From contig JADFWU010000038.1 of assembly GCA_015234045.1 (NCBI GenBank), positions 1 through 30,015 on the forward strand: a stretch of 30,015 nt of DNA, read 5' to 3'. Below are positions 9,154 to 16,965 of this stretch, piece after piece (positions within the stretch are counted from its first letter, which is position 1; each line of letters begins with the position of its first letter). A program made the translations under genes and the position numbers. The stretch comes from Magnetococcales bacterium. GTDB taxonomy: Bacteria; Pseudomonadota; Magnetococcia; Magnetococcales; JADFWU01. Below the pieces are notes generated by a model. It was not told the DNA's origin and made no database searches. It was given only the letters and a program-made list of their open reading frames with translations.

Positions 9154-9729
9154 AAAAAGGTTTGGGCTGAATATGGCAGATATCGTGCGACTCCCTTTTC
9201 TGTGTTGGATTTGGGTCGCATTAATGATTCAGATCTATCACGTGATGATTTGTTAAGAGGTGGATTCTTAGCATTGAAATGCGTTTTTCAAGCGGAGCTT
9301 TCGGTTGATGTGGTCGCTTCAATTGGTCAAGCGCTTCATGGTGATACAGAGCTTGCTCAACGTGCGTTGTTGTATCTGATTCAGACTTGTGAGGATTTTG
9401 ATATGAGTAGTGTTCAGGCATTTACGGAAGAAGCCTTTCCTGGTGAAACAGAACAGTATGCGTCTCAATTTGCTAGAGAAATGATCGAGAAAGGGCTTCA
9501 GAAAGGACTTCAAAAAGGGCTTCAAAAAGGGCTTCAAAAAGGGCTTCAAAAAGGCCATCAGGAAGGTGAGTCGGCATTTCTGCTGAGACAGCTTCAGCGT
9601 CGGTTTGGGGTTTTGTCAGATTCGGTTGTTGAACAGGTCAAATGTGCGGATCTTGCTGCTCTTGAGTTGTGGGGAGATCGGGTGCTTGATGCGCGGTCGT
9701 TGGATGACGTTTTTTTGGATGAAGCGTGA
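9154..9729 (+). pseudogene. N-terminally truncated Rpn/DUF4351-type nuclease gene
   Basis: The open frame begins right after the chemoreceptor stop, and no normal start is seen; a GTG at 9202 gives 175 residues. The product matches only the C-terminal part of Rpn-family (YhgA-like, PD-(D/E)XK) proteins. It starts at the L-D-L-G-R-I-N-D-S-D-L segment, then L-A-L-K-C-V-F. After a K-G-L-Q repeat comes a DUF4351-like tail (L-L-R-Q-L-Q-R-R-F-G-V-L). The roughly 150-residue nuclease core expected at the N-terminus is missing. Residues upstream of 9202 (E-Y-G-R-Y-R-A-T-P-F-S-V) stay in frame and family-like, so the break lies very near 9154. This is a deletion remnant. It might still be translated by read-through or coupling from the chemoreceptor gene. 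Confidence 0.7.
9490..9561 (+). repeat. 12-bp tandem repeat coding KGLQ
   Basis: Six consecutive 12-bp units (AAAGGGCTTCAA and close variants) lie inside the Rpn remnant and code K-G-L-Q or a variant each time. Such expandable helix repeats are common in the linker of Rpn/DUF4351 proteins. Confidence 0.9.
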
Positions 9730-9765
9730 GATTTGGTTTGAGTTTGTTGTGAGGTGATGGTGTCG

Positions 9766-11064
9766 ATGAATACATCTGTTGAGAAAACATTACTGTATAG
9801 ATTGGATCATCTACCTGCTGGTTGGGCGTTGTTGATGGGGGTGATGGTTGGTGTGTTGGGCGGTGCGGTTTTGCTGTGGTTGTGGCCGGAGTGGGGCTGG
9901 ATAGGTTATGTGGTGTTGTTGGGGCTTGCCGTGGTGTTGGCTTGGACGGGTAAGCCGGTGGTGAAGCGTGAACGCCGTGCGATTGATGTGCCAGAGCAGG
10001 GTGTTGAAGAAGTGAGTACGCCGGATGAGCAGGAAATAGTAGGAGAGCTACCAGCAGAAACAGTGCCGGACATACCAGAGCCTGACATACCAGAGCCCGA
10101 TATACCAGAGTCTAACGCTGATACTCAACCAATAGAGCCTGAAGCCAGTCAGGAATCAGAAGAGCCACAGAACACACCAAAAACCGAGCCAATTGATCAG
10201 GATGTGGCTGAAAAATCACCGAAAAAGATGTCTCTGGCGACTCGGGCTTATCTGCCCAAAACGGATGAAGAAAAAGCCGCATTCAATACCATCCATAAAG
10301 CACCGCACAGGCCTTTGGATGAGTTTGTTGAGATTCCTGCTGGGCGCTTCATGATGGGAAGCCCGGATTCGGACGATTTGGCTCGTGATAATGAAAAACC
10401 TCAACGTGATGTCACAATCTCCTCACTCAGTTGCATGCGCTATCCAGTGACCCGAAAGCTTTATCAAGAGGTGATAGGCAAGGTCTCTGACCATTGGGAT
10501 GATCAAGCAAAGGAGAACTGGCCAATAACGGAAATAAGTTGGTTGGAGGCAGTGATATTCTGTAATCAGTGGTCTGAGCGGGTGGGGTTGACACCCTGTT
10601 ATGAGCAACAGAGTAAACAGATTATATGGCATCGTAGAGCAGATGGCATCCGGTTACCGACAGAAGCGGAGTGGGAATATCTGTGTCGAGCTGGAACAGA
10701 GACTCCGTGGTTTTTTGGTGAAACTGATGATCTGGGTAAGGAGTATGCTTGGTTTGAAGATAACTCAGAAAATCGGCCACATGCTGTGGGCACCCGAAAG
10801 GCCAATCCTTGGGGGTTGTATGATTTATCAGGCAATGTGTTTGAATGGTGCTGGGATCGATATGGTGACTATTCCAAGGAGTCACAGGAGAATCCGGTCG
10901 GCCTGGAGGCAGGTGATGTGCGCGTGATTCGCGGCGGCTCTTTTTTGTTCTGGTCCGGGAGCCTGCGCTCTGCGGACCGGGTCAGGGTCGAGCCCGTGAA
11001 CCGGGTCAGGTTCCTTGGTTTTCGTTGTGTTCGCGGCGCGTCTCCCGCCAGCCTTGATCATTGA
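9766..11064 (+). CDS. Membrane-anchored FGE-sulfatase/C-type-lectin-fold protein, probable DGR target
   Basis: 432 residues from the ATG at 9766, with GAGGTG 9 nt upstream; in-frame GTG 9754 and ATG 9757 are alternatives. Two hydrophobic segments (about 20-40 and 44-60) anchor the N-terminus. A Pro/Glu-rich linker follows, with a D-I-P-E-P repeat. From about residue 186 comes a formylglycine-generating-enzyme (SUMF) domain: E-I-P-A-G-R-F-M-M-G-S-P, R-L-P-T-E-A-E-W-E-Y, P-W-G-L-Y-D-L-S-G-N-V-F-E-W, R-V-I-R-G-G-S-F and G-F-R-C-V-R-G. This fold is the usual ligand-binding scaffold varied by DGRs. No sulfatase gene is nearby, so a binding role is more likely than catalysis. The last 48 codons hold the variable region shared with the convergent gene. 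It is probably a second sensor of the adjacent MoxR system. Confidence 0.85.
   Translation: MNTSVEKTLLYRLDHLPAGWALLMGVMVGVLGGAVLLWLWPEWGWIGYVVLLGLAVVLAWTGKPVVKRERRAIDVPEQGVEEVSTPDEQEIVGELPAETVPDIPEPDIPEPDIPESNADTQPIEPEASQESEEPQNTPKTEPIDQDVAEKSPKKMSLATRAYLPKTDEEKAAFNTIHKAPHRPLDEFVEIPAGRFMMGSPDSDDLARDNEKPQRDVTISSLSCMRYPVTRKLYQEVIGKVSDHWDDQAKENWPITEISWLEAVIFCNQWSERVGLTPCYEQQSKQIIWHRRADGIRLPTEAEWEYLCRAGTETPWFFGETDDLGKEYAWFEDNSENRPHAVGTRKANPWGLYDLSGNVFEWCWDRYGDYSKESQENPVGLEAGDVRVIRGGSFLFWSGSLRSADRVRVEPVNRVRFLGFRCVRGASPASLDH
10069..10110 (+). repeat. 15-bp tandem repeat coding DIPEP
   Basis: About 2.8 copies of a 15-bp unit code D-I-P-E-P in the linker between the membrane segments and the FGE domain. 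It likely forms an extended stalk. Confidence 0.85.
10921..11057 (+). repeat. Putative DGR variable region 1
   Basis: This 137-bp segment is repeated in inverted orientation at 11353-11489. The left 27 nt (10921-10947) and the right 50 nt (11008-11057) are identical in the two copies. The 60-nt core between them (10948-11007) has 13 differences, 12 of them at codon positions 1 or 2. Seven of the 13 sites carry A in one copy. This is what adenine-directed mutagenesis of a template rich in AAC codons would give. The constant 3' part would be the homing-initiation (IMH-like) end. It ends 7 nt before the end of the gene. Confidence 0.72.
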
Positions 11065-11081
11065 TTTCTTGATCTTTTTAA

Positions 11082-11106
11082 CGCCGCGCAGCGGCGAGAT
11101 TTTTAT
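11082..11106 (+). terminator. Hairpin with GCA triloop plus T-run after variable region 1
   Basis: CGCCGC (11082-11087), loop GCA, GCGGCG (11091-11096), then GAGATTTTTA. It can serve as a rho-independent terminator for the FGE gene. Its place, 24 nt after the variable region, also matches the hairpin/cruciform that stimulates DGR homing. Confidence 0.6.
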
Positions 11107-11111
11107 TGGGT

Positions 11112-11129
11112 AAGTGACAATTGTCACTT
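11112..11129. promoter_or_regulatory. Perfect 18-bp palindrome
   Basis: AAGTGACAATTGTCACTT is a perfect inverted repeat between the two convergent FGE genes. The half-site TTGTCAC recurs at about 11184. It could be a protein-binding site or part of the recombination-prone 3' region; function unknown. Confidence 0.4.
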
Positions 11130-11306
11130 TATTGGTCGTGATTGCACCAATATTTGTAGTTTTTGGTAGTTTTTTGGTGTTTTGTTGTCACCCATTGTGT
11201 CACAAGGTGAGTAATAGGCCGCGATAGGATTTTAAGGTTTGACAAAATAGTACCAAAATGGTCGTTTTTTGTCATGTGTTTGTGTTTTTTTGTCTTTATT
11301 AAGTAC

Positions 11307-11332
11307 CAAAAAAAATCTACCCGCTTCGCGGG
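11307..11332 (-). terminator. Hairpin with GAA triloop plus T-run after variable region 2
   Basis: Read on the minus strand: CCCGC, loop GAA, GCGGG (11332-11320), then TAGA and a long T-run (to about 11307). It is a good rho-independent terminator for the conflict operon. It is the counterpart of the hairpin at 11082, 20 nt after the second variable region. Both hairpins are preceded by TTGATCTTTT. Confidence 0.65.
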
Positions 11333-11345
11333 AAAAGATCAATAA

Positions 11346-14123
11346 TCAAGAGTCAAGGCTGGCGGGAGACGCGCCGCGAACACAACGAAAACCAAGGAAC
11401 CTGAACCGGTCCCCGGGCTCGTACCAGTCCCGGTCCGCTGAGCGCAGGTACCCGGACCCGGCCAAAAAAGAGCCGCCGCGAATCACGCGGCGCAAGCCAG
11501 TCTTAGGCCCTGTGGGATTGGTTTGCTCTTTAGCAGGATAAGTGTCATACCAATCCGAGTTCCATTCCCAGGCATTGCCATGCAAATCATACAGCCCCCA
11601 TGGATTGGGGCGCATGGAACCAACAGTTAATAAGGAATCTGAATTTTGCTTGTTGTAATTAGCGTATTGATCCAGCTGGCTCTCATCCTCACCAAAAGAC
11701 CAGCGTGATTGTGTCCCGGCCCGAGTAGCGTATTCCCATTCTGCCTCGGTGGGCAGTCGATAACCCAATGAGCGACAATATCCATCAGCATCATTCCAGG
11801 ATACGTTTATCACAGGAAGGTCATCTTCACCCTTATGATCTGGATGAACCAGACGGTATTGGGCATTGGTGGTCTCATATTTTGCCATATCGAAGGCGGA
11901 AAGAGTCACTTTGTGTACTGGGCCTTCATTGGAGTTTCGACCTTTTTCATTTTCTGGTGAGCCCATCTTGAACGACCCAGCACAGAGTCGGATAAAAGGA
12001 ATGCCGTTATTGTCCTTATACTCACTATGAGGGCAGAATAGAGATGTCCATAGGTAGGTGTCATAAAAAATAAAATAACCGCCAGAAATAGCCAGCCAGA
12101 GTGTGATGCCAATGGAGAACCAAACACGCCCTGGTGATTTTGTTGAGTAGTTTACGCCTGGATCTCCACCAAAGCCCATTGTCAACAGCATCGCTTTTTC
12201 CGCATCGGTGCGGTCATCTAACTGCCAGGGTAGTCGTATTAAATCGGATGAAGTGGCGTGTTGGTCAGAATAGGGTTTGATACGTTTCTTGATCAGTTCG
12301 CGTAATTGATCAGATTTGTTTGAAGGCTCTTGGTCGAACAGTGTGAAAAGGGCAGGGATGGCTTTTTCTGGTGCGAGCCAAAGGGTGAGTAGGACCTGCT
12401 CAACGGTGAGCCGATGATAGGCCAGGCTGTTTTTTTCCGGGCTCTCCTCTGTTTTTCTAATTTGTCTTTCAAACGCTGTTAGCCAATAGTTCAGCGCTTT
12501 GTTCAGAACTGTGTCTTCATGAAGCGTGTCTGACGGATCAACTTGTTGATAAAAACTCAACCAATCCAGAAGCTCTTGTCTCTGAGTGTCGGTAAATATC
12601 ACTGCGTCGGTGCTGGATTTAGCATAGTGGAACAGATGGCGGTAATGGCTACTTGGACAGCTGATTTTGAGTTCTTTGTGCAGTGCTAATGCTTGGGATT
12701 CCAAAACAGGCAGAGGAGACAGCGCACATGTGGCGGCCCAAAGTTTAATTACATTTTTATCTTCAATCCGTGCTGGCTGTGTACGGCTCTGACCCAAAAC
12801 AGCAGGCAGCTGATCCGCTGTAATCAGCGCTAATTGAAAAGGCTCAATAACTGTCTTTAACGCGCGGCTGTCGGTCAAGTCTGTCACAAACCAAAGACGA
12901 GGAAAAGACGATAACATCCGTAAAATGGCATTAAAACGCACAGAGTTCCTATCAGAACGCTGATATTGAGCGCTCAAAAGCTCACCATCGGTAAGCAGGA
13001 GCATAATCAATCCATTACGTTGCTCTTCCAGATCGCTAAGAATAAAACGTGCTTGAGCGTTGTCGGTAAACTGATCCGGCTTGATCCAGAAAAAGGCGGT
13101 CTCAACCGGTAAATTAGCTCTGAGCAGTGCGGTTTCAACTTCTTGGGCCAGACGCTCCAGTGTAGGGCTTTGGCAGGCTTTATCCAATAGAATCCACACC
13201 GTGCGGTGATAACGGGCTGGTTGAAAAACCAGGTTCAATAAACCGCCATCCTGAGCGGTTTTCTCAACTGTGGCATCTATATCAATTGTCTGAGTTGCTT
13301 CTTCAGCTGTAAATGTATCAATGCCCCAAACAATCAACTCTTCATTGGTATGATCCAGAAAAATAAGCTCTTTTGATTCCCATGCAGGTAAATAAGGTTC
13401 CGTTGCGCCCTCATTAAACAAAAGCGGTTCAGAAGGCTGAAGTAGTCGCCTTCTAAGTGGGAAAAGAAACATCAAGATCAATATAATAAAAGCAGAAGCT
13501 GCAATGGCAGGATAGGGATGATTGATAGTGCGAATAACCGTTGGTGGTGCGTTGTTGGATGGATCTTTGATGCTTGTTTCATCTGTTAGCTTTAAAAGTT
13601 GTTTGAAATCTTGATTGCTTTTCTGGAATATTTCATCCTGCATCAACGGACGTGGTGGTGAGGGCGTGAATTCAATTTGCTCTGGAATAATTGCCGCAAA
13701 AACAATGATGATTAGGAAAAGTGAATAGGCCAGCAATAGCCACAACACTCTTTCCCAGGTAATAAAGGATTTTTTTTGAATGGGGCTGTTGGTGTCAAAG
13801 GATCTGGTAGCGTGCTGTTGATCAGGTGTGCCTGAAGGGTGATCCGTGGTCGGAAATAATTTTGATTTGTTATTAAGGGTGATGTTGTCTAACCACTGAT
13901 CAAACAATCGATTAAACAGTTTTCTCTTCTCATCCGAGCGCACCAGAATAGAGGATAGAATGGCCTTGATCTGTGCAATGGTTGGCGCATCGCTCTCTGA
14001 CTGAGCGATTTTCTGAAACACCGCATGAATCCGCAACGTCTCCTGAATGCCGATATCCAGACCACCATGGCGTAATCCAGTTAGTAGCGAATCCAGCGAA
14101 GGTGTTTCACGTAACATCGACAT
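11346..14123 (-). CDS. vWA-like, membrane-spanning, FGE/C-type-lectin-fold sensor of a MoxR conflict system
   Basis: 925 residues from the ATG at 14123, which overlaps the MoxR stop in TGATG; the longer frame to 14249 begins at TTG inside MoxR. Residues 1-80 resemble the helical N-terminus of CoxE-type vWA proteins. TM1 lies at about 126-147 and TM2 at 205-223. A vWA-like domain starts near 308, but its metal site is degenerate (W-I-L-L-D-K-A-C-Q-S in place of DxSxS). A helical region follows, then TM3 (about 668-690). The C-terminal FGE domain (about 700-925) has R-L-P-T-E-A-E-W-E-Y, N-P-W-G-L-Y-D-L-H-G-N-A-W-E-W and R-V-I-R-G-G-S-F. The variable region codes residues about 887-907. Topology suggests the FGE domain is on one side of the membrane and the vWA part, facing MoxR, on the other. 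Inferred role: ligand sensing coupled to the ATPase. Confidence 0.85.
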   Translation of the reverse strand: MSMLRETPSLDSLLTGLRHGGLDIGIQETLRIHAVFQKIAQSESDAPTIAQIKAILSSILVRSDEKRKLFNRLFDQWLDNITLNNKSKLFPTTDHPSGTPDQQHATRSFDTNSPIQKKSFITWERVLWLLLAYSLFLIIIVFAAIIPEQIEFTPSPPRPLMQDEIFQKSNQDFKQLLKLTDETSIKDPSNNAPPTVIRTINHPYPAIAASAFIILILMFLFPLRRRLLQPSEPLLFNEGATEPYLPAWESKELIFLDHTNEELIVWGIDTFTAEEATQTIDIDATVEKTAQDGGLLNLVFQPARYHRTVWILLDKACQSPTLERLAQEVETALLRANLPVETAFFWIKPDQFTDNAQARFILSDLEEQRNGLIMLLLTDGELLSAQYQRSDRNSVRFNAILRMLSSFPRLWFVTDLTDSRALKTVIEPFQLALITADQLPAVLGQSRTQPARIEDKNVIKLWAATCALSPLPVLESQALALHKELKISCPSSHYRHLFHYAKSSTDAVIFTDTQRQELLDWLSFYQQVDPSDTLHEDTVLNKALNYWLTAFERQIRKTEESPEKNSLAYHRLTVEQVLLTLWLAPEKAIPALFTLFDQEPSNKSDQLRELIKKRIKPYSDQHATSSDLIRLPWQLDDRTDAEKAMLLTMGFGGDPGVNYSTKSPGRVWFSIGITLWLAISGGYFIFYDTYLWTSLFCPHSEYKDNNGIPFIRLCAGSFKMGSPENEKGRNSNEGPVHKVTLSAFDMAKYETTNAQYRLVHPDHKGEDDLPVINVSWNDADGYCRSLGYRLPTEAEWEYATRAGTQSRWSFGEDESQLDQYANYNKQNSDSLLTVGSMRPNPWGLYDLHGNAWEWNSDWYDTYPAKEQTNPTGPKTGLRRVIRGGSFLAGSGYLRSADRDWYEPGDRFRFLGFRCVRGASPASLDS
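11353..11489 (-). repeat. Putative DGR variable region 2
   Basis: Inverted copy of 10921-11057, at the 3' end of the 925-residue protein gene. The constant flanks are 11463-11489 (27 nt) and 11353-11402 (50 nt), and the variable core is 11403-11462. Encoded differences from copy 1 include F-W to A-G, S to Y, V-R-V to D-W-Y, V-N to G-D, and V to F. Confidence 0.72.
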
Positions 14124-15055
14124 CAACCGAGTATCTCGTAATCGTCCCGATCCTTGATCAGTGTGTTTAAAGCGGGTAGGTCTGAGAGTGGGCAGTGTGA
14201 AATATGGTTGAGATCGGTGTATTGCATGGCAGAAAGTGCTGTCAGCCAAACAAGTAATTCAGCGGTTGCTGGACGTTTTCGAAGCTCTACGGACCGCAAC
14301 TCTAAAAATCGCGTGGTTGCCGCGTCTCGGATCTCAACGGACAGGTTGGGAAAATCACCAATCCGTGCCTCTACAGCTTTTCTAACCAGATCATCAGAAA
14401 AGGTGATGTAATGAAAAATGCACCGCCTGAGAAATGCCTCAGGCAACCGGCGTTCACTGTTGCTGGTTATGATGACAATTGGCGGTGGCGCGTCTTTGCG
14501 AGAGATATCATCATCCAATTCATCCACTCGAAAAGTGTGCTGATCCAATACGTTCAGTAGATCATTGGGAAAATCACGGGATGCCTTGTCAATCTCATCC
14601 AACAGCACAACCGATGGATCGCTCTGTTCAAACGCTTTCCACAGTGGTCCTTGTCGAATAAAATTATTCATATCATCAATGTCTTGCTTAGGATCTTGCG
14701 CCGCATGAAGGTAGGCCACAGTATCAAACCGATATTGTAGATCACTGGCGGTTGTGGTGCTTTTAACAAACAACGGAAACAATTCAATACCAAAAAAACT
14801 TGCCAGATAGTAGGCCAACTGCGTCTTGCCTGTTCCAGGCTCACCGGTCAGCAAAAGAGGAGCGCCCACTGTTAAGGCAACATTCACCGCTTCCAATAGA
14901 TCAGGATCAGGATGATAAAACTCAGCCCCTTTTTCAAGACTGCCAAGCGAAGAAGGAATATCACGGGTCGCAAGCAGTGTTTTACGGGTGGCCTGATCGC
15001 GTTCAGCATCAAGAAGGTTGAAAACAGATTTATTGGTGTCAGTCATCGTTACCAT
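14123..15055 (-). CDS. MoxR-family AAA+ ATPase
   Basis: 310 residues. Walker A G-E-P-G-T-G-K-T (71-78), Walker B V-V-L-L-D-E-I-D (149-156), sensor-1 Asn near 199, and the paired Arg of F-L-R-R-C near 210 as candidate arginine finger. The MoxR-type lid follows. MoxR ATPases remodel proteins together with vWA-domain partners. Here the partner is the next gene, whose start overlaps this stop (TGATG). Its own start overlaps the end of the upstream gene by 7 nt, so all three genes are translationally coupled. An alternative start is the ATG at 15046. Place and coupling point to the motor of a ternary conflict system, not to a metal-insertion role such as methanol dehydrogenase maturation. Confidence 0.93.
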
Positions 15056-16965
15056 GTCCCGCGTTTGGGTCTATTGGGTTCGAGCTCACCTTTCATATGA
15101 GAACGTAGAGCATACCATCCACTGTTAACGCCTTTGTTCAGTAAAACGATTAACTGCTGAAAAACACCGCCATTTGATTTCTGATACAAAAGGTCTCTTG
15201 TCTCCGTCAAAATATTTGCTGGACATGAAATGTGTCTAAGGAAATCAAGTAGTTCACGCTTTGGAACCTTGCCAACCGGACTGCTCAGTTTTTTATACCA
15301 GAATGCAGGGTCTGTGAAATTGTCATCAAGTTTCTCCAGAAAACTGTCAACATTTGAGATGTGTTTGGGAGCTACTTCCATGGAAGCAAAGCAGATTACT
15401 TTCACGGAACGCGGACAGAATGGTGTGAGCGTATTGTGAGCATGACTGAGCCAGTCAGAAATTTCATCAGCTTTAATCTGATGTTTTAACTGTGGATTGT
15501 TATGACCAAATGCGCCCATATCCAACCAGATAATCCGTTGTCTGCCCGGAGGTGCTTCGGGTGCGGCACGAGTGAGAATGGAATCCCATGGCTCATTGCT
15601 TTCTGCGCCAAGAGCTCTGCGTAGGGCTTGTTCCAAATCAGGTATTAGGTTGATACGTATATCTGGAAAATCGACGTTGATTTTCTTGATGGCAATACTG
15701 TTGGCGAGCACTTCAGATGTGTTGAGAAAGTGAATCAACTGATCACTGAGAATCTCAATCATATTGTCTGGTGCGGCAAATGGCAATAACGCCATCACCC
15801 TTGCTCTGGAGTCGCCTAACAGCTCAGAGATCCATTTGAGCATGTGGCTTTTAATGCCATCCCGATCCAATATCATTTCCAATTTGATTGGCACCTGTTG
15901 TTGCCCAGGTACACGGGATGACTCTGGCGGAATGTAGGGAAATGTTTGAAAGATGATGCGATGAGATAAGCAGACAAGTGAATCTGCTGTCGTTGAAGGA
16001 TAGCTCTTGCAAGATTCGTGAAAGGCGGTAATTGGTGATTTTGTGTTGTGTAACCAGTTATGGAAAAAGCTCAATGCAATATTGTTTTTTGCGTCATCCT
16101 CGGTTGAGATAATGTTTCTAACCACAAAAGGTGTGCGTTTGGAAAATTCTTTAGATGGGTCCAGGTTGAGCGGCAATGCACCGCTGCTGTTCATATAGAT
16201 GACCGCTGGAGGATGTTTTAGTTTTTCTATATCCGTTTGAAATGCCGACCATGGATATTCAGAGCCGTCTGAATTCCTGAGTAGAATATCTCTATTGTCT
16301 GAATCGTTTTGCTGCGTATCGATATAAATAATAGTCGGAGGTTTATCCTCAAGAGCTTGTCTGATGTCGTTCTTTGAAAGGGCGATGGACAGCCAAGACT
16401 CTTCCTTATCGCCCCAAACCTCTTTTAATGCACCAGTAAATTGGGCAGAGTGGCTGGCTGACTTTGTACCAGTAAAGATGGCTAACAATCCACTTCGTGG
16501 TTGTATGGTCTTTGACTCGGTTTGTGTGATATCTCGATCAAAAGCTGTTGTAATCTGCCACCCTTCTTTAACAAGGGAAAAATTTTTCCATCGCATTAGT
16601 CGCCAAGGCAAAGCAATATACTCTGGAAGGTCAGATATGATTTTTAAGGAGATTGGCTTTGAGACAGGGGTTTGATTTTCTATAAGATCGCCATGGACCA
16701 CTCTGAGAACTTCTTCGATTTTGAGTCCATTGCCAAAGAGAAAAGAAAACAGTTTTGAACCAATTTCTCCGTTGTCCTGGAATGGTTCAGGATCACCAGT
16801 ATTTATACTGTTGTGAAGATCGAGAAAGGTATTCTTTTTTGGAATGAATATGAAATTGAATCGCGATGATACCAAAGGCAAATAATATTCCAGTAGAATC
16901 TGGGTGCCTTGTAGAGAGATCTTAACTTCCAGCTCAAATACATAAGGACTTGCACTGCTGCTCAT
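15049..16965 (-). CDS. Degenerate CHAT-like protein of the conflict operon
   Basis: 638 residues, ATG at 16965 with AGAGGT 10 nt upstream. No clean family match from reading alone. Residues about 60-325 follow the CHAT (caspase-like) layout. [11 protein letters not shown] (113-123) stands for the usual LPWELL. A strand I-I-Y-I-D-T-Q sits where the catalytic His is expected, and V-I-Y-M-N-S-S-G-A (255-263) where the catalytic Cys is expected; the pair is not conserved. The helix after I-S-T-E-D-D-A-K matches the CHAT end. The C-terminal half (about 345-620) has Rossmann-like strands, including [10 protein letters not shown], and could be the inactive NTPase-like module reported in ternary conflict systems. 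It is the first gene of the operon. Probable roles are adaptor or effector control; certainty is low. Confidence 0.6.

What the first reader, a model, noticed from the sequence alone, without database searches (positions are those of the whole stretch)
10921..11489. Two convergent genes end in inverted copies of a hypervariable segment: probable DGR variable regions
The 3' ends of the FGE genes share 27 nt upstream and 50 nt downstream without a single difference, yet the 60-nt core between them has 13 differences. Twelve fall on codon positions 1 and 2 and only one on position 3. Purifying selection or neutral drift would give the reverse. The differing codons (TTC/GCC, AGC/TAC, GTC/TAC, AAC/GAC, GTC/TTC) are all reachable from AAC-type template codons by changing adenines. 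The segment lies in the ligand-binding end of an FGE/C-type-lectin fold, the standard DGR scaffold.
Basis: partly seen in the sequence, partly recalled or inferred. Interest (0 to 1): 0.92.

Follow-up and report, generated by a model that had tools for sequence, protein, structure and literature searches.

The report
Inverted hypervariable tails, probably DGR targets
Two neighbouring bacterial sensor-like genes end in copies of one segment that is identical at its edges but scrambled in its binding core, the signature of a known protein-diversifying machine (a diversity-generating retroelement), although the machine's reverse transcriptase and template are absent from this incomplete genome assembly.

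Summary
A 146-nt inverted pair (10921-11066 / 11344-11489) ends two convergent FGE-domain genes. Differences: 0 in 27 nt, 13 in 58 nt, 0 in 52 nt; the rest of the two FGE domains is only 49% identical. The DGR reading is well supported by comparison. Confirmed DGRs (IGNLTSQ-type RT, Avd, template, FGE target) exist in genomes of the same order, and 11 of the 13 variable sites fall on adenines of a relative's template (p = 5e-5; no enrichment for C, G or T). All 13 fall on an adenine in at least one related template. Gene B is homologous to a confirmed DGR target and, like it, sits beside a MoxR-type AAA ATPase. This is the published "clade 5A" conflict-system layout: one short and one long FGE target. 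However, the window's own assembly (93% complete) holds no DGR RT, template or Avd; its only RT is a group II intron maturase. A second family of the order (G006) has the same convergent inverted pair and also no detected RT. Best reading: variable regions diversified in trans by a DGR outside the assembly, or recently lost. New member of a known kind; the conserved RT-less convergent arrangement is the interesting remainder.

The parts
9754..11064 (+). Gene A, short target: N-terminal hydrophobic segments, acidic/proline-rich linker, C-terminal FGE-sulfatase domain
   Evidence: ORF; PF03781 4e-46, residues 188-427; hydrophobic N-terminus read by eye
11346..14249 (-). Gene B, long target: about 750-aa N-terminal extension without Pfam domain plus C-terminal FGE domain; the listed TTG start overlaps the MoxR gene, the true start is probably downstream
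   Evidence: ORF; PF03781 6e-52; homologous to the confirmed DGR target of G001 (E 3.6e-10, N-terminal part) and to G006 (E 5.9e-55)
10921..11057 (+). Variable region of gene A (identity block with gene B); hypervariable core 10948-11005
11353..11489 (-). Variable region of gene B, inverted copy; hypervariable core 11405-11462
11044..11057 (+). CCCGCCAGCCTTGA at the 3' end of VR A, candidate IMH-like DNA element
   Evidence: Same 14 nt at the end of both VRs of Thiodictyon pTs485 in another reading frame; function inferred
11353..11366 (-). Same CCCGCCAGCCTTGA element at the 3' end of VR B
11082..11096 (+). GC hairpin CGCCGC-GCA-GCGGCG downstream of VR A, followed by T-rich DNA: terminator or DGR-type hairpin
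   Evidence: z -1.3, not significant as a fold; role inferred
11320..11332 (-). GC hairpin CCCGC-GAA-GCGGG downstream of VR B; the same hairpin lies downstream of the G006 gene-B VR, there without a T run
   Evidence: role inferred
14123..15055 (-). MoxR-type AAA+ ATPase, directly upstream of gene B
   Evidence: AAA_5 1e-16; 60%, 44% and 42% identical to ATPases beside the gene-B homologues of G006, G034 and G001
15049..16965 (-). 638-aa protein without Pfam match, first gene of the operon; occupies the place of the VMAP/effector partner
   Evidence: No family at E<=10; homologue (25% over 565 aa) in the G006 operon

Best explanation
The two inverted segments are variable regions (VRs) of one diversity-generating retroelement acting on two convergent FGE-fold (C-type-lectin-like) target genes of a MoxR-type conflict system. 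An RT copies a template RNA, misreading adenines, and the cDNA replaces the 3' end of either gene. This keeps both copies identical outside the adenine-derived codons and scrambles about ten residues of the presumed ligand-binding end in each. Shown: the VR pattern, the coincidence with related templates' adenines, and the homology of gene B to a confirmed DGR target. Inferred: that the RT and template act in trans from DNA missing from this 93%-complete draft (for instance an unbinned plasmid or prophage) or were lost recently; that the FGE tips bind an invader-derived ligand; and that the signal passes through the ATPase to the 638-aa partner.
For: Identical flanks with a scrambled core while the rest of the domain is 49% identical. 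Window variable sites against template adenines: 11/13 against 15/65 with the G018 template, p = 5e-5; no enrichment of C, G or T sites. The synonymous site TCT/TCA matches an adenine in the Prosthecochloris template (TCA, read TCG and TCT in its VRs). The non-Asn site GTG/GGG matches GTG/GAG in G006 and a template A in a myxobacterial DGR. In the confirmed relatives the changes are A to T 22, A to G 21, A to C 8, with only 2 non-A changes; the window's variable letters are T 11, G 7, A 7, C 1. Six of the variable codons are NNC/NNC. Full DGRs of this kind occur in the order. Gene B and its ATPase are homologous to the G001 DGR target and its neighbour, where RT and template are adjacent. The layout matches clade 5A of PMC10907252. 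FGE relatives include a solved DGR variable protein, TvpA 2y3c (E 7e-25). The VR 3' motif is conserved as DNA but in different frames.
Against: No DGR RT, template repeat or Avd in the assembly; its only RT is a group II intron maturase. G006, with the same inverted pair, also has no PF00078 match. Two independent gaps in 93%-complete assemblies are somewhat unlikely unless the cassette sits on DNA that is badly recovered. There are no population reads to show ongoing variation.
Confidence: 0.8

Rival explanations
1. Relict VRs: a DGR made the differences in the past, the RT and template were then lost, and gene conversion between the closely spaced inverted arms now keeps the flanks identical.
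For: No RT or template in this assembly and no RT in G006's; arms only 277 and 251 nt apart, a favourable geometry for conversion.
Against: Conversion would homogenise the core as well as the flanks, and tracts would not stop at the same DGR-like borders; zero differences in 79 flanking nt imply recent copying.
Confidence: 0.17
2. Ordinary duplication or gene conversion followed by positive selection on ligand-contact residues, without any retroelement.
For: The variable sites lie in the C-terminal end of the FGE fold and nearly all change amino acids.
Against: Needs 13 point changes in 58 nt with none in 79 flanking nt, and does not predict coincidence with template adenines including a synonymous one or near absence of C among the variants.
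Confidence: 0.05
3. Chance similarity or assembly artefact, such as a collapsed repeat or chimera.
For: Draft assembly of 117 contigs.
Against: The same convergent inverted pair with its own sequence occurs in an independent genome, G006; both genes are open to their ends.
Confidence: 0.02

Closest known systems
DGR clade 5A loci, e.g. DGR 8 of Thiohalocapsa PB-PSB1 (PMC10907252)
   Same: MoxR-like ATPase directly upstream of a target with a long domain-less N-terminal extension; [quoted passage not shown]
   Different: Here the two targets converge and their VRs are inverted repeats 277 nt apart; no RT, Avd or template nearby or in the assembly; no homology test against PB-PSB1 itself was possible
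DGR of G001 (same order; L037)
   Same: Target gene homologous to gene B including its N-terminus, next to a MoxR-type ATPase; FGE VR with adenine-only changes
   Different: RT and template are in cis, directly beside the target
DGR of Prosthecochloris aestuarii plasmid pPAES01 (NC_011061)
   Same: FGE targets, same template motif around RGGS...RSA, including the adenine that explains the window's one synonymous difference
   Different: Complete FGE-HRDC-Avd-RT-template-FGE cassette in cis on a conjugative plasmid
VMAP/MoxR ternary conflict systems (PMC7159879)
   Same: MoxR ATPase plus FGE-bearing, DGR-linked partner
   Different: No vWA or VMAP domain found in gene B or the 638-aa partner

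Membership tests
Diversity-generating retroelement (complete) | DGR-type reverse transcriptase in the genome | tested here: not met
   PF00078 and a 5-sequence DGR-RT profile find only a group II intron maturase (TIGR04416) in the own assembly, 93% complete
Diversity-generating retroelement (complete) | Template repeat matching the VR except at adenines | tested here: not met
   DNA search with the VR, a 21-mer pattern with 3 mismatches and a related template find only the two VRs
Diversity-generating retroelement (complete) | Avd accessory protein | tested here: not met
   Best match E 0.04 with stops inside
DGR variable region | Two or more copies identical except at template-adenine sites | tested here: met
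   By proxy of related templates: 11/13 on A of G018, all 13 on an A in some related template; the own template is unknown
DGR variable region | VR at the 3' end of a CLec/FGE-fold gene | tested here: met
   PF03781 and PDB 2y3c match
DGR variable region | IMH at the VR 3' end, differing from that of the template | tested here: inconclusive
   A conserved frame-independent DNA motif GCCAGCCTTGA is present; there is no own template to compare
MoxR ternary conflict system, DGR clade 5A type | MoxR ATPase directly upstream of a long FGE target, with a second short FGE target | tested here: met
   layout as described in PMC10907252
MoxR ternary conflict system, DGR clade 5A type | RT belongs to clade 5A | not testable with these tools
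   No RT in the assembly

The most novel reading that the evidence does not exclude
Convergent target pairs with inverted VRs are a separate, RT-less class: the two VRs diversify and stay in step through each other (conversion between inverted arms plus an unknown adenine-biased mutator, or a foreign RT that visits), conserved in at least two families of this order.
Probability: 0.07. Interest if true: 0.8.

Novelty: new member of a known kind. Interest (0 to 1): 0.42.

Why it matters
It extends DGR-diversified conflict-system sensors to a deep lineage with no other held genome of its family, and shows target pairs that seem to be served from a distance. If the RT and template prove to be on a mobile element, this is a case of sensor diversification lent in trans; if they are truly absent, two genomes with fresh-looking VRs and no RT would need a new explanation. 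Closing two genomes would decide it.

Tried and rejected
Chance hits of the VR in G002 and G030 (L006, L007) are unrelated genes. The own genome's RT at G000:C43 is a group II intron maturase with QGSPLSP, not a DGR RT. Exact-pattern scans of viral and genome collections found no template; phages gave no match and plasmids only Thiodictyon. The AlphaFold model of the gene B FGE domain was unusable (mean pLDDT 36.6), so no exposure or fold argument is made from it. RNA folds of the downstream hairpins are not significantly better than shuffles. Pfam and PADLOC gave no domain for the gene B N-terminus or the 638-aa partner.

Full report
Observation. The 146-nt arms 10921-11066 and 11344-11489 are inverted copies 277 nt apart. 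Aligned in the shared reading frame, 10921-10947 and 11006-11057 are identical, and 13 differences lie in the 58 nt between; 12 are at codon positions 1-2. Both arms are the C-terminal ends of FGE-sulfatase domains (PF03781) in convergent genes. Elsewhere the two FGE domains share only 49% of nucleotides, with many synonymous differences. So the flanks have been copied recently while the core has not been kept. The codon-position bias alone is modest (p = 0.02-0.04).

Own genome. The window is the whole contig G000:C49 of a 3.65-Mb, 117-contig assembly, 93% complete, the only held genome of its family. The assembly holds one RVT_1 protein, a group II intron maturase. A profile of DGR RTs finds nothing else. 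No third copy of the VR, no template and no Avd were found. A complete DGR is therefore not shown in this genome. The order is unnamed in the tool; from genome sizes I guess Magnetococcales, which was not verified.

Relatives with complete DGRs. In the same order, G001, G014, G018, G031 and G035 carry RTs with the DGR hallmark IGNLTSQ. G001, G014 and G018 show template-VR pairs. Of 53 differences in these three pairs, 51 are at template adenines (A to T 22, A to G 21, A to C 8). G018 also has HRDC-like and Avd-like genes between target and RT (identified by eye and by the annotated Prosthecochloris cassette). The G018 template reads RGGSWNNNPANVRSANRNNNDPGNRNNNIGFR.

Window against templates. 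The VRs align to these templates without gaps. Eleven of the 13 variable sites are template adenines in G018, against 15 of 65 invariant sites (Fisher p = 5e-5); C, G and T sites show no enrichment. The two exceptions are explained by other DGRs. The synonymous TCT/TCA is TCA in the Prosthecochloris pPAES01 template and TCG and TCT in its two VRs. GTG/GGG is GTG/GAG in G006 and an adenine codon (GAC) in a myxobacterial template. Caveat: sites within a codon are not independent, and these positions probably also face the ligand, so the p-value overstates the evidence somewhat.

Conserved arrangement. Gene B's N-terminal extension is homologous to the confirmed DGR target in G001 (E 3.6e-10) and to G006 (E 5.9e-55). 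In G006 the whole operon is kept (638-aa partner 25%, ATPase 60%, gene B 31%), and gene A's homologue (52%) again converges on gene B. The ends there form another inverted pair (L151 905-1093 / 1345-1533, 251 nt apart), identical over 40 nt downstream, with 12 core differences on the 78 aligned sites tested that also favour template adenines (p = 0.011). G006 has no RVT_1 match; its template was not separately searched. On the Thiodictyon plasmid pTs485 two FGE genes also converge (4.5 kb apart, with an insertion sequence between); their tails show a similar constant 3' part and variable core, and no RT similar to the G018 DGR RT was listed on that plasmid at E 1e-20.

DNA-level elements. The last 14 nt of the window VRs, CCCGCCAGCCTTGA, occur at the end of both Thiodictyon VRs in another reading frame (PRQP-stop against PASLD), and G006 has TCTCGCCAG in yet another frame relative to the DGR relatives. 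Confirmed relatives have GCCAGGACT at the VR end and GCCAGTACA or GCCAGCACG at the template end, the expected IMH/IMH* contrast. This suggests a DNA signal rather than protein constraint; its function is inferred. The hairpin CCCGCGAAGCGGG lies downstream of the gene B VR in both the window and G006.

Known context. PMC10907252 describes clade 5A DGR loci with a MoxR-like ATPase directly upstream of a target with a domain-less N-terminal extension, and a second short CLec-only target. The window matches that layout. The same paper reports targets diversified in trans and loci whose RT was lost. PMC8144416 notes that remote targets escape metagenome surveys. A complete DGR with FGE targets sits on the conjugative plasmid pPAES01, so an unbinned plasmid is a plausible home for the missing cassette.

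Verdict. Very probably DGR variable regions of a conflict-system sensor pair, served in trans or recently orphaned. It works like a DGR target; membership in a complete DGR is not demonstrated. New member of a known kind. The repeated absence of an RT beside convergent inverted VRs is the part worth following.

Noticed in passing
L151 (G006:C67) 905-1093 and 1345-1533: Second independent convergent FGE pair with inverted variable ends and the same operon, in a genome with no RVT_1 match.
   Followed up: yes
L153 (Thiodictyon syntrophicum plasmid pTs485) 9032-9138 and 13652-13758: Two convergent FGE genes with VR-like tails, separated by IS91-family transposase and toxin-antitoxin genes; the 5' ends of the two genes are also about 90% identical in inverted orientation.
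   Followed up: partly
window 9202-9729: DUF4351 protein with KGLQ repeats just upstream of gene A, perhaps a remnant of an Rpn/PD-(D/E)XK transposase-like gene; a similar stretch lies near the DGR RT of G035 (L041 2474-2653), possibly only low complexity.
   Followed up: no
L001 1042-2352 (G000:C43): Group II intron maturase, the only reverse transcriptase of the window's genome.
   Followed up: yes
L042 6480-8240 and L043 5941-7680: RT proteins of about 580 aa that carry the DGR-like IGNLTSQ motif, but no nearby FGE target or template was found by the simple scan.
   Followed up: no
window 15049-16965: 638-aa operon partner with no Pfam, NCBIfam or PADLOC match, conserved in G006.
   Followed up: partly
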